Of a stretch of DNA of 64,000 nt, positions 35,805 through 39,492 are shown in pieces (the stretch's first letter is position 1; every line of letters starts with the position of its first letter). The notes under the pieces are model-generated. The model was not told where the DNA came from. It made no database searches and was given only the letters and a program-made list of their open reading frames with translations. The stretch is from Petrachloros mirabilis ULC683 (GTDB lineage: Bacteria; Cyanobacteriota; Cyanobacteriia; Thermosynechococcales; Thermosynechococcaceae): positions 1 to 64,000 of the forward strand of contig NZ_WVIC01000011.1 of NCBI RefSeq assembly GCF_009939295.1, in the 5' to 3' direction. The position numbers were made by a program, and so were the translations under genes.

Positions 35805-36113
35805 ATGTCTCTCCCATCCTTCCCATCAAGTCACTCAGACAGTCCGAAGCTAGAGCAGTTTCATAGCTGGAAACTAGAAGATGCCTAAGCTCGGCTGAGC
35901 GAAGTCGTGCGCCTGGCTCGCGACAGTGAACCCCAGCGCATCACCGTTAGGGGCAAAGATGCCGTCGTCATGCTCTCTGCCCAAACCTTTGCCAAACTGC
36001 TGCCCTTGCTCGCAGAACCCAACCTGCATCATCTGCTCAGTCAATCACCCCTGAGTCGTTTGGACTTTGAACCGAGCAGGATGGAATCACCCGTTCGAGA
36101 AATTGAGCTATGA
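35805..36113 (+). pseudogene. Phd/YefM-type antitoxin with an in-frame stop
   Basis: From ATG 35805 the frame reads MSLPSFPSSHSDSPKLEQFH then SWKLEDA and TAA (35886-35888). After the stop it continues ARLSEVVRLARDSEPQRITV and GKDAVVMLSAQTF, the classic Phd dimer interface. Family members have Lys or Gln at the stop position (WxLEDAKARLSEVV). One base change explains the nonsense codon. A GTG at 35907 could restart translation, giving a 68-residue form lacking the DNA-binding strand. Its end overlaps the toxin start (ATGA) as in an intact operon. Confidence 0.75.
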
Positions 36114-36538
36114 GAGGTTGGTTATTAGACACCAACATCATCTCCGAACTTCGTAAAGTCAATTGCCATTCCAGGGTTAAAGCGTGGGCGGATCGTCAGC
36201 CCCCGCAGAGCTTCTACCTCAGCAGCGTGACCATTGCCGAAATTCGCTTTGGCATTGAGCGAGTGGAAGACCCCGCTTTTCGAGAAGAATTAACGCTGTG
36301 GCTAGAAGGTACGCTTCGGCCTTGGTTTAAGGATCGTATTTTAGCCATTGATGAGGACGTGATTCTGCTCTGGCGGCAGATGGTAGAGCGAGGACGCAAG
36401 GCCAGTTACACCTATAGCCAACCTAACCTATTCATCGCGGCAACGGCTGTGCGGCATGAGTTGTGTGTGGTCACCCGCAATATGGCTGACTTCAAGCGTT
36501 ATCAGGTTGCAGTTCTCAACCCTTTCGACAAAGACTGA
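36110..36538 (+). CDS. VapC/FitB-type PIN toxin with a substituted catalytic Asp
   Basis: A 142-residue PIN ribonuclease fold. First acid in WLLDTNIISE (Asp8), second in IAEIRFGIE. The third motif, normally (P/x)DxxIAATA, reads QPNLFIAATA, so the conserved Asp is Asn. The last motif VTRNMADF is normal. Loss of that Asp is expected to weaken or abolish metal binding and RNA cleavage. The gene is otherwise full length and overlaps its damaged antitoxin gene by 4 bp. Fits a toxin tolerated after loss of its antitoxin. Confidence 0.8.
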   Translation: MRGWLLDTNIISELRKVNCHSRVKAWADRQPPQSFYLSSVTIAEIRFGIERVEDPAFREELTLWLEGTLRPWFKDRILAIDEDVILLWRQMVERGRKASYTYSQPNLFIAATAVRHELCVVTRNMADFKRYQVAVLNPFDKD

Positions 36539-36607: not shown

Positions 36608-38005
36608 ATGAATTTACATGAAAATTATTCTAGAAAAGCTAATGAGCTACCAATCTCCTTGTCACCAGTCTATTTCTCCAATAAAGTCAATGAATCTATT
36701 TTACTATTTGAAGGGGACGCAAAGCTTATAGAAGAATCCGAAAGTTCATCTTACGAAATTGAAGGAAAACTAAAGATAGAGTATTTATGGTTGCCTTTTC
36801 CAAGGTTAGGATTCAGATTCGAATCTGATATTAATAACGAGGGAAAAATTCCTTTTTCATCTGAAAACAAGAAAATTATACACTTTCAATTAAATTCAAA
36901 ACATATCATAAAATCAGAAGTAGATCTTTGTAGTCAATCAACACAAAACAGAAAATTGACGATCTCAGGTAATATTCTAGATTCAATATCATATGGAGAA
37001 AATGAACCTGTTAAAGAAATACTATTTCATGTTGTGAATTTTAATGATTATATTGGATTGCCAATTAAATATTTAGATAAAAATACAATCAGCAAGAATA
37101 GAATCGTACTTGAGTATGAAAATTGGAAAATAACAATTGATAAAGTAAGTAATAGAAGTGAACTAAAAAAAGAATTCAAAGAAAACCTTGGATTCGCAAT
37201 TACTAATGTTGGAAAGCTAGAGAGAACTGATAACAAAAATTTTACTGTTAATGAATCCTATGATATCCTAAAAACAACTAAATACTTTCTCTCTTTTGCT
37301 AGAGGTCTTCATGTTGGCATAATTTTAATATCTGGATATATGAATAGCGGAAAAAAAGTATGTGAAATCTGGAACAATGAACGTTGTGACCCTTGGTTTT
37401 ATGTGCGTTCTTGGTTTCCAGAACACAAACCTTATAAGGCAGTTAAGTGTTTTTCTGGTTTTTGTGAATGGTGGACGAATAATATTCGCGACAGGCAGAT
37501 TTTATTCTGGTTTTTAGAAGCTAATAATAATCTTACTCTTGAAAGTCGTATAGTTTTAGGACAAATTGCATTAGAAAGATTTTACTATTTATATTTTAAC
37601 AAACGCGAGTACGCTCATCAACAAATAAGACTTCTATTGGAAAAATTTAAAATTCCCAACTCTATTCCTGAATTAAAAACCAAGATAATATCAAAGTCAG
37701 TCTTGACTGATATAACTAAAATAGCTTTATTGGCTGATAAAAATAATAAGAAGAATTCATCTATTCCAATTGATATGTCATTTTTGATAGCAGAGATTAG
37801 GAATGATTTGGCTCATCCAAAACAAAAGTATGAAGACATTGATGGTAATGGCTTAAATACACTATCACAATTTTTATTTTGGTATCTCGAACTTATTTTT
37901 TTGGCAACTTTTAATTATGATGACGTTTACTTCAACCGACTTCAAATTAATAGTTGGGCTGGAACTTATGAAAGTGTTCCCTGGAATATTCCAATAACTG
38001 AATAG
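36608..38005 (+). CDS. AT-rich HEPN-domain protein (ApeA-like), putative defence gene
   Basis: A 465-residue protein far richer in A and T than its neighbours, with Asn, Lys and Ile overuse, pointing to recent transfer. The N-terminal 200 residues are beta-rich (LKIEYLWLPFPRLGFRF) and resemble the N-terminal domain that precedes HEPN domains in ApeA-type proteins. The C-terminal half is helical (RIVLGQIALERFYYLYF) with the HEPN ribonuclease motif Rx4H in IRNDLAHP (Arg398-His403). HEPN proteins of this build are linked to anti-phage abortive infection. It lies between toxin-antitoxin genes, an expected setting. No partner gene is evident. Family call is by motif only. Confidence 0.6.
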   Translation: MNLHENYSRKANELPISLSPVYFSNKVNESILLFEGDAKLIEESESSSYEIEGKLKIEYLWLPFPRLGFRFESDINNEGKIPFSSENKKIIHFQLNSKHIIKSEVDLCSQSTQNRKLTISGNILDSISYGENEPVKEILFHVVNFNDYIGLPIKYLDKNTISKNRIVLEYENWKITIDKVSNRSELKKEFKENLGFAITNVGKLERTDNKNFTVNESYDILKTTKYFLSFARGLHVGIILISGYMNSGKKVCEIWNNERCDPWFYVRSWFPEHKPYKAVKCFSGFCEWWTNNIRDRQILFWFLEANNNLTLESRIVLGQIALERFYYLYFNKREYAHQQIRLLLEKFKIPNSIPELKTKIISKSVLTDITKIALLADKNNKKNSSIPIDMSFLIAEIRNDLAHPKQKYEDIDGNGLNTLSQFLFWYLELIFLATFNYDDVYFNRLQINSWAGTYESVPWNIPITE

Positions 38006-38117: not shown

Positions 38118-38282
38118 TCAAATATCCTCCAAGGTCAGTTGCTCAAGCCATTGATGCCGCTCCTGAGTGTAGTCATCACTGCCGTTTTCAAACTGGCGCA
38201 TGAATCGAATGGCATCGCCATATCCCAAAGAATTAATCAATGCCTGGAAACCTTTGCGGTTTATTTCAAGTGGTGTCAACAT
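38118..38282 (-). CDS. Truncated paralogue of the PIN-partner protein
   Basis: A 54-residue frame: MLTPLEINRKGFQALINSLG then GDAIRFMRQFENG and DYTQERHQWLEQLTLEDI. It aligns along its length with the 75-residue protein directly upstream (NEILDQGYKALVNSLGVVDA, DYTQERHEWLDQLSM), so it arose by tandem duplication. It lacks the last 20 residues. 13 bp separate it from the other copy's stop. Confidence 0.6.
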   Translation of the reverse strand: MLTPLEINRKGFQALINSLGYGDAIRFMRQFENGSDDYTQERHQWLEQLTLEDI

Positions 38283-38295
38283 TTATATATATTTT

Positions 38296-38523
38296 TTATT
38301 CAATAATTTCCTCAAAATTACTTTTATTATCTATTTCTTTATGCTTTCGCATTTCAACTAGAAAATCATTCATAGATAGTTGATCTAACCATTCATGGCG
38401 TTCTTGGGTATAATCTCCGTAGCCGGGGCTAAAATGTTGAATAAATCGAATGGCATCAACAACACCTAGAGAATTTACTAGAGCCTTGTATCCCTGATCA
38501 AGAATTTCGTTTTGAGTTTTCAT
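38296..38523 (-). CDS. Small partner (likely antitoxin) of the PIN protein
   Basis: A 75-residue helical protein with a conserved core DAIRFIQHFSPGYGDYTQER. Short genes of this type pair with PIN genes in many cyanobacteria, so it is probably the antitoxin, though here it lies downstream of the toxin (16-bp gap). No HTH or ribbon-helix-helix motif was seen. A shorter duplicate follows at once. Confidence 0.65.
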   Translation of the reverse strand: MKTQNEILDQGYKALVNSLGVVDAIRFIQHFSPGYGDYTQERHEWLDQLSMNDFLVEMRKHKEIDNKSNFEEIIE

Positions 38524-38539: not shown

Positions 38540-38992
38540 CTATATCACTTGCGCTAGCCACTGTACAGGGTTATCAACCTTGACATTAAGGTGATTCAGT
38601 AATAATCTTGCTTTTCGAAGTAAACGATCATCTGTCGTTAGAAAAATATCGGCATGACTTCTCTCGGCACTGGCAATATGAGCTGCATCGTAAAAGGTAA
38701 AGCCTAATTGAGTAAGATCTGCTATTCGTTGCTCTAATACATTGCTGGTTTGAACCTTAATGATAGCGATTGAAAGTAAGTCCTGCACTTGTCTTAAGCG
38801 GCTTGGATTGGGGGTTAGTCTAATTTCAGCATCAAGGGCGCTACTGATCACGAGTTTCCAGCTCTTCGTTTGACACTTACGTAAGATCAACAAGACTGCT
38901 TCTGCTTCTAGCCGAATCCGTTCTTGGGTTTGATCATCGAAAGGGCGGTTGAGGCAGCACACATCTAGATAAATTTTGTACTGTTTTGCCAT
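38540..38992 (-). CDS. PIN-domain ribonuclease toxin
   Basis: A 150-residue PIN protein of the type starting YKIYLDVCCLNRPFDDQTQ (first Asp with the LNRPFDD motif). Second acid region is ALDAEIRLTPNP, third YDAAHIASAE, fourth FLTTDDRLLRKA. All catalytic acids look intact, so it should be active and need a neutralising partner, most likely the 75-residue protein encoded next. A fragment of a second gene of this family lies at 35523-35657. Confidence 0.85.
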   Translation of the reverse strand: MAKQYKIYLDVCCLNRPFDDQTQERIRLEAEAVLLILRKCQTKSWKLVISSALDAEIRLTPNPSRLRQVQDLLSIAIIKVQTSNVLEQRIADLTQLGFTFYDAAHIASAERSHADIFLTTDDRLLRKARLLLNHLNVKVDNPVQWLAQVI

Positions 38993-39174: not shown

Positions 39175-39492
39175 GTGAAGTTTTTGGTAGATACCCAACT
39201 GCCCCGTGGGCTAGCTCGGTTTCTTCAGAAGGCTGGATAGGACACCGTGCATACCCGAGATTTACCCGAAGGCAAGGTCACCCTCGACACGGCTATCAAT
39301 ACCCTGTCCATCGCCGAACAGCGTATGGTGATCACCAAAGATGCCCACTTCGTGCAGTCATTTTTGCTCTAAGGGCAGCCCCACAAGTTGATTTTGGTAG
39401 CGACCGGCAATATCAAAAACGCTGGCCTCGCAGCCCCGTTTCAATGCCTTCATCCTACTGTCTCTGCGGGGGTGACCCCACTGCTCTCATGA
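39175..39492 (+). pseudogene. DUF5615 PIN-like protein with two nonsense codons
   Basis: From a GTG at 39175: MKFLVDTQLPRGLARFLQKA G, TAG, DTVHTRDLPEGKVTLDTAIN, MVITKDAHFVQSFLL, TAA, GQPHKLILVATGNI. This follows DUF5615 toxins throughout (KFLxDxQLPxxLAxxL, GxDxxHTxDLP, VITKDxDF, LVxTGN). The two stops fall where the family has an aromatic residue (G-Y-D) and Gln. Beyond TGNI the sequence no longer matches. Dead gene; its usual DUF433 partner is not seen. Confidence 0.75.

What the first reader, a model, noticed from the sequence alone, without database searches (positions are those of the whole stretch)
36608..38005. AT-rich HEPN gene in a toxin-antitoxin island
Base composition is sharply lower in GC than neighbours, the protein has the Rx4H motif (Arg398, His403), and it sits between a decayed Phd/VapC pair and an active PIN pair. 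This is the typical setting of an acquired abortive-infection gene. No partner or known system name fits with certainty.
Basis: partly seen in the sequence, partly recalled or inferred. Interest (0 to 1): 0.65.

Follow-up and report, generated by a model that had tools for sequence, protein, structure and literature searches.

The report
Unannotated YopA-family HEPN defence gene
An AT-rich gene acquired by a cyanobacterium encodes a predicted RNA-cutting (HEPN) protein of the poorly studied YopA family, distantly related to the known anti-phage protein ApeA and missed by current defence-gene libraries, so it is probably a one-gene anti-phage suicide switch.

Summary
The gene at 36608-38005 has 29.6% GC in a 50% GC window and is the lowest-GC stretch of its length there. 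It sits between a Phd/VapC pair that is genuinely broken (in-frame TAA in Phd; catalytic Asp to Asn in VapC) and an intact-looking PIN gene with two small antitoxin-like genes. Pfam, NCBIfam, PADLOC and PHROGs give no significant match, but it is a full-length homologue of phage SPbeta YopA, a rare E. coli "YopA family protein" and scattered cyanobacterial genes (17-35% identity). Arg398 and His403 are invariant in all 29 homologues. A model of its C-terminal domain finds HEPN structures first (all top ten PDB entries). Profile comparison ties the family to ApeA across both domains (P 8e-8; controls 0.12 or worse), although the ApeA Pfam models are not met. The family is patchy and sits on prophages, plasmids, integrase elements and beside restriction genes; SPbeta-like phages carry YopA or ApeA in one hypervariable region. 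Best reading: a horizontally acquired, single-gene, ApeA-like abortive-infection RNase with a beta-rich N-terminal sensor. Defence, RNase activity and trigger are inferred, not shown. New variant of a known kind.

The parts
36608..38005 (+). YopA-family HEPN protein gene, 465 aa, GC 0.296
   Evidence: ORF; GC; homology to SPbeta YopA, E 3e-27 over 95%; 29-member alignment
36695..37387 (+). beta-rich N-terminal region (residues 30-260), putative sensor; invariant N144, near-invariant W173, G195, T199, G233, G243
   Evidence: AlphaFold2 model, pLDDT mostly 80-95, pTM 0.86 for the whole protein; conservation; role as sensor inferred
37433..37909 (+). C-terminal helical HEPN domain (residues 276-434)
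   Evidence: the top ten PDB entries in the VIA-align re-ranking are HEPN-superfamily proteins, Z 7.0-3.9
37799..37816 (+). catalytic-type Rx4H motif R398-NDLA-H403
   Evidence: invariant in 29 of 29 homologues; aligned with the invariant R/H of ApeA
35805..36113 (+). Phd-type antitoxin pseudogene, in-frame TAA at 35886-35888
36110..36538 (+). VapC-type PIN toxin, probably inactive (catalytic Asp to Asn); ends 69 nt before the HEPN gene, same strand
   Evidence: PIN E 4.8e-7; residue read by eye
38118..38282 (-). small antitoxin-like ORF, C-terminally short copy
   Evidence: 56% identical to its neighbour; function inferred from position
38296..38523 (-). small antitoxin-like ORF paired with the PIN gene
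   Evidence: relative fused to a YopA-family protein in L040
38540..38992 (-). PIN-domain toxin-like gene, intact-looking
   Evidence: PIN E 0.0011, below the curated cut-off
39184..39434 (+). remnant of a further toxin-antitoxin type gene (DUF5615-like by eye), two in-frame stops
   Evidence: translation; family assigned by eye, not tested

Best explanation
The gene encodes a stand-alone, horizontally acquired anti-phage effector of the YopA family, built and probably working like ApeA. [quoted passage not shown] The N-terminal beta-rich region (residues 30-260) holds it inactive and senses a product of phage infection. When triggered, the RNase cuts cellular RNA and stops growth, so the phage cannot spread. 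Shown: homology, fold (predicted), conserved motif, patchy and mobile distribution, defence-type neighbourhoods. Inferred: RNase activity, dimerisation, autoinhibition and the trigger. Borrowed and unverified: that the trigger could be deoxydinucleotides, as the title of a preprint reports for ApeA.
For: HEPN fold: all top ten PDB entries in the re-ranking are HEPN-superfamily (HepT, AF_0298, AbiV, sacsin, then Las1, MtlR), with unrelated chains below. R398, H403, E323 invariant in 29 homologues. ApeA link: profile-profile P 8.1e-8 over 291 columns spanning both domains, motif residues superposed; reversed control 0.44, best of 60 shuffles 0.12; N-N 1.8e-4 and C-C 9.4e-5 separately, cross pairs 0.38-0.55. 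9 of 29 members match HEPN_Apea weakly, best 3e-4. Mobile and patchy: 7 of 194 relatives and 14 of 386 cyanobacteria (each tally includes the genome itself); 19 of 5426 E. coli genomes, some with partial copies. Defence neighbours: E. coli three-integrase island with type I R-M and two DUF262 genes; methylase and helicase on Nostoc and Planktothrix plasmids; Eco57I methylase and GmrSD in G276. SPbeta-like phages: YopA or ApeA in the same hypervariable region, which also holds GajB- and SspH-type genes. No conserved partner gene.
Against: No member has a reported test of defence in the papers searched. The window protein and most relatives match no ApeA Pfam or PADLOC model, so the link is remote. 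SPbeta-like phages carry about 100 gene families in that region, and 53 of 59 loci have neither gene, so sharing the region is weak evidence. The window has no other known defence system next to the gene. Z-scores of 6-7 are moderate, and Foldseek alone gave no significant hit.
Confidence: 0.62

Rival explanations
1. It is the HEPN toxin of a toxin-antitoxin pair, neutralised by a neighbouring small protein or by a gene of the adjacent modules.
For: It lies between two toxin-antitoxin modules. PIN/VapC or DUF5615-type neighbours recur beside relatives (L063, L065, L066, L077, L078), and in L040 a small antitoxin-like N-terminus is fused in frame to a YopA-family protein.
Against: Neighbours differ from context to context and no small gene accompanies the family; SPbeta YopB and the E. 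coli HTH gene next to YopA are unrelated. The 69-nt upstream VapC is probably inactive and its Phd is broken. The small genes downstream are on the other strand and pair with the PIN gene.
Confidence: 0.15
2. It is an accessory RNase guarding restriction-modification systems (PrrC-like): it is released when the R-M system is inhibited by a phage.
For: R-M or methylase/helicase genes next to YopA in E. coli, Nostoc, Planktothrix and G276; ApeA genes are also noted in R-M operons (PMC3710099).
Against: No R-M gene beside the window gene, in the SPbeta stretch or in many cyanobacterial loci.
Confidence: 0.12
3. It is passive cargo of a toxin-antitoxin/mobile hotspot, or a HEPN protein with a non-defence role such as RNA binding or lysogeny control in prophages.
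For: The SPbeta slot is hypervariable with many unknown genes; MtlR shows that HEPN folds can lack RNase activity (PMC3710099).
Against: The Rx4H motif is invariant across phyla, which points to conserved catalysis; several carriers are ordinary chromosomes or plasmids rather than prophages.
Confidence: 0.11

Closest known systems
YopA of Bacillus phage SPbeta (yopA, NP_046623.1) and the RefSeq 'YopA family protein' of E. coli
   Same: Full-length homologues with the same two-domain layout and invariant R/H motif.
   Different: About 23-27% identity; different mobile contexts; no function reported in the papers searched.
ApeA (PF18862 ApeA_NTD1 + PF18739 HEPN_Apea; PADLOC Cas13-ApeA), single-gene anti-phage system of Gao et al. 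2020
   Same: Same size and architecture (about 270 aa beta-rich N-terminal domain, C-terminal HEPN), profile homology over both domains, E and Rx4H aligned.
   Different: The window protein reaches neither ApeA Pfam model nor PADLOC ApeA. The ApeA N-terminal WWLP..P signature is replaced by LYEG...W.P, and the GGYAITH block is characteristic of YopA.
HepT, AbiV and other HEPN effectors
   Same: HEPN fold and catalytic-type motif.
   Different: HepT is held by the MNT antitoxin (7ae2 title); neither has a beta-rich sensor of this kind as far as I know; no sequence similarity to solved HEPN chains was detected.

Membership tests
HEPN superfamily | Rx4-6H motif at the end of the penultimate helix | tested here: met
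   R398-x4-H403 at the end of helix 390-402, invariant in 29 of 29
HEPN superfamily | HEPN helical bundle fold | tested here: met
   Predicted fold; top ten VIA-align entries all HEPN-superfamily, Z 7.0-3.9. Moderate Z; Foldseek alone not significant
HEPN superfamily | RNase activity | not testable with these tools
   needs an assay
YopA family | Full-length homology to SPbeta YopA with GGYAITH and Rx4H blocks | tested here: met
   tblastn E 3e-27 over 95%; alignment A6; the window reads LGFAITN in the first block
ApeA | Match to ApeA_NTD1 (PF18862) | tested here: not met
   No match for the window protein or any of 29 members at E 0.5; all 11 ApeA controls match
ApeA | Match to HEPN_Apea (PF18739) above the curated cut-off | tested here: not met
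   Window protein none; 9 of 29 members weak, best 3e-4
ApeA | Two-domain layout and remote homology over both domains | tested here: met
   hhalign P 8.1e-8, controls 0.12-0.44, each domain separately significant; model
ApeA | Anti-phage protection; activation by deoxydinucleotides | not testable with these tools
   Activation known to me only from a preprint title cited in PMC13405049
Type II toxin-antitoxin system | Conserved cognate antitoxin gene in the operon | tested here: not met
   No recurrent partner among the loci

The most novel reading that the evidence does not exclude
The YopA family is an unrecognised, widespread single-gene anti-phage system, sister to ApeA, whose divergent N-terminal domain senses a trigger of its own; SPbeta yopA would then be a prophage-encoded defence gene of the standard strain B. 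subtilis 168 that the defence library scanned here does not report.
Probability: 0.4. Interest if true: 0.62.

Novelty: new variant of a known kind. Interest (0 to 1): 0.45.

Why it matters
PADLOC, Pfam and NCBIfam miss this family, so it is uncounted in defence surveys of cyanobacteria, E. coli and Bacillus. It gives a directly testable function for yopA of SPbeta, a long-known hypothetical gene of a model prophage, and a divergent comparison for how ApeA-type N-terminal domains sense infection.

Tried and rejected
Pfam, NCBIfam, PADLOC and PHROGs on the single protein: no significant hit. A PDB sequence search gave only weak chance hits. Full-length Foldseek against viral and PDB libraries gave no meaningful match. 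A PilZ/flavin-reductase-like small barrel at residues 29-126 (Z up to 6.9) is below the level of trust and was not used. YopB/HTH as a conserved partner: rejected, as the SPbeta and E. coli neighbours are unrelated. Strict alternation of YopA and ApeA in SPbeta-like phages: not claimed; 59 loci (some probably near-duplicates) show YopA in 2, ApeA in 4, neither in 53 and never both. Insertion borders or target repeats at the window locus: none convincing, no tRNA. An empty site in relatives could not be shown because the closest genomes are too diverged. Literature: no functional paper on SPbeta YopA found; the 'yopA' papers found concern the unrelated Yersinia gene, apart from one Bacillus strain genome analysis that I did not open.

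Full report
Observation. The ORF 36608-38005 (+, ATG, 465 aa) is as described. Its GC is 29.6% (22.7% at third positions) against 50.4% for the window; the lowest-GC 1398-bp stretches of the 64 kb all overlap it. A plausible ribosome-binding site, AAAGGA, precedes the ATG. Upstream lies a Phd/VapC pair. The Phd frame is broken by a TAA at 35886-35888, and VapC, though open and PIN-like (E 4.8e-7), reads Asn where the third acidic residue is expected (my reading). Downstream, on the minus strand, are a PIN gene (38540-38992; E 0.001) and two paralogous small ORFs, then a stop-ridden remnant at about 39184-39434 that looks like a DUF5615-type gene. The host genome holds about 31 PIN matches in 4.1 Mb, so two PIN genes within 2 kb of one gene is not typical, although toxin-antitoxin genes are known to cluster.

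What it is. The single sequence matches no curated family. tblastn found full-length relatives on cyanobacterial, Methylophaga and E. coli plasmids and one phage protein, YopA of SPbeta (E 3e-27 over 95% of the query). Searches of relatives, of the phylum and of genome and viral collections extended this to an alignment of 29 sequences, including a distant subgroup (L028, L029, L032). R398, H403, E323, N144 and L432 are invariant, with N399, G195, T199, G233, G243 and Y437 nearly so.

Fold. AlphaFold2 on the window protein with nine relatives gives a confident model (pLDDT 82.5, pTM 0.86): a beta-rich region from about 30 to 260 and a helical domain from 276 to 434, with R398/H403 at the end of helix 390-402. 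The C-terminal part folded alone (pLDDT 80.4, pTM 0.81) and re-ranked against Foldseek's PDB candidates finds first HepT toxins, archaeal AF_0298, AbiV and sacsin HEPN (Z 7.0-6.0), then Las1 and MtlR (Z 4.0, 3.9), all HEPN-superfamily, before unrelated chains. Foldseek on its own gave nothing significant. The agreement of the top ten, not the height of Z, carries the argument. Both were passed.

Relation to ApeA. A 2013 survey (PMC3710099) describes ApeA as a beta-rich N-terminal domain of about 300 aa fused to a HEPN domain. I collected 11 cyanobacterial ApeA proteins; all match ApeA_NTD1, HEPN_Apea and PADLOC's Cas13-ApeA models. Profile-profile comparison with the YopA family gives P 8.1e-8 over 291 columns, aligning the conserved Glu and the two Rx4H motifs. 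Controls: reversed ApeA 0.44; best of 60 column shuffles 0.12; N-terminal halves 1.8e-4, C-terminal halves 9.4e-5, mismatched halves 0.38-0.55. The window protein itself fails both Pfam models, and 9 of 29 relatives reach HEPN_Apea only weakly. I therefore call YopA a sister family of ApeA, not a member.

Distribution and context. The gene is rare and scattered: 7 of 194 relatives (own genome included, no other member of its own family), 14 of 386 cyanobacteria, 19 of 5426 E. coli genomes, some with partial copies only. It is lower in GC than its flanks in 19 of 25 loci, median 6 points. In E. coli it lies in an island between ssb1 and yjcB that starts with three integrase-type genes and carries an HTH gene, a type I R-M set, two DUF262 genes and an M48 protease. 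On Nostoc and Planktothrix plasmids it lies between a DNA methylase and a helicase; in G276 beside an Eco57I methylase and a GmrSD-type gene. Integrases are close in Methylophaga, Crinalium and Oscillatoria. PIN, HepT or DUF5615 genes are close in L063, L065, L066, L077 and L078, and in L040 the N-terminus of a small antitoxin-like protein is fused in frame to YopA. No neighbour is conserved, and the small HTH genes next to SPbeta YopA and E. coli YopA are unrelated.

SPbeta-like phages. A scan for ApeA in viral contigs returned SPbeta-like phages. In L094 ApeA sits between YopB and yopE, where L034 and SPbeta have YopA just before YopB, with flanking genes up to 99% identical; in L090-L092 ApeA lies between yopF and aimR. 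Over 59 SPbeta-like loci, 2 carry YopA, 4 ApeA, none both, 53 neither. The region is hypervariable, and its cargo includes genes matching PADLOC models for GajB, SspH, ApeA and several candidate systems. This fits a cargo role in phage-phage or phage-host conflict but does not prove it.

Mechanism. I propose a self-contained sensor-effector: the beta-rich N-terminal region restrains a HEPN RNase that dimerises and cuts RNA once infection produces a trigger. HEPN RNases are described as acting as homodimers (PMC13405049). ApeA is reported as an anti-phage HEPN protein (PMC7699616, PMC10952713), and a preprint title says that deoxydinucleotides activate it (cited in PMC13405049); I have not read that preprint. 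Whether YopA shares the trigger is unknown; the N-terminal halves are related but divergent. Shown here: homology, predicted fold, motif, distribution. Inferred: RNase activity, dimerisation, autoinhibition, trigger, protection.

Verdict. The gene is a member of the YopA family, a divergent ApeA-like HEPN family absent from the defence library scanned. Interest is moderate: the kind of system is known, but the family is unannotated, includes a gene of the model prophage SPbeta, and can be tested with standard strains.

Noticed in passing
L040:1676-3133 (Synechococcaceae SM2_3_2): The first 46 or so residues of a small antitoxin-like protein, paralogous to window 38118-38523, are fused in frame to a YopA-family protein, right after a PIN-like gene that resembles window 38540-38992.
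   Followed up: partly
L094:4173-5660, L090/L091/L092:4953-6347, L093:4644-6071: SPbeta-like phages encode bona fide ApeA close to the arbitrium receptor gene aimR, in the same hypervariable cargo region as YopA.
   Followed up: yes
L110:3663-4622, L125:7659-8978, L100:3952-5745, L106:3968-6214: The yopB-to-aimR region of SPbeta-like phages is a cargo hotspot with about 100 gene families in 59 loci, some with defence-model matches (GajB, SspH, candidate systems); others look AbiH-like by eye.
   Followed up: partly
L060:9724-27766, L061, L062: E. coli island of about 18 kb between ssb1 and yjcB with three integrase-type genes, YopA, HTH, type I R-M, two DUF262 and an M48 protease; some strains hold both chromosomal and plasmid copies.
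   Followed up: partly
window:7674-9775: A second low-GC pair of ORFs (GC 0.41 and 0.44) in the window, another candidate for acquired genes.
   Followed up: no
window:36692-36985 (residues 29-126): The predicted first beta barrel of the N-terminal region resembles PilZ and flavin-reductase barrels (Z up to 6.9), too weak to interpret.
   Followed up: partly
L028:1426-2808, L029:859-2322, L032:1453-2898: A distant subgroup (17-21% identity) with the same Rx4H motif but a divergent N-terminal region suggests a still wider YopA-like superfamily in cyanobacteria.
   Followed up: partly
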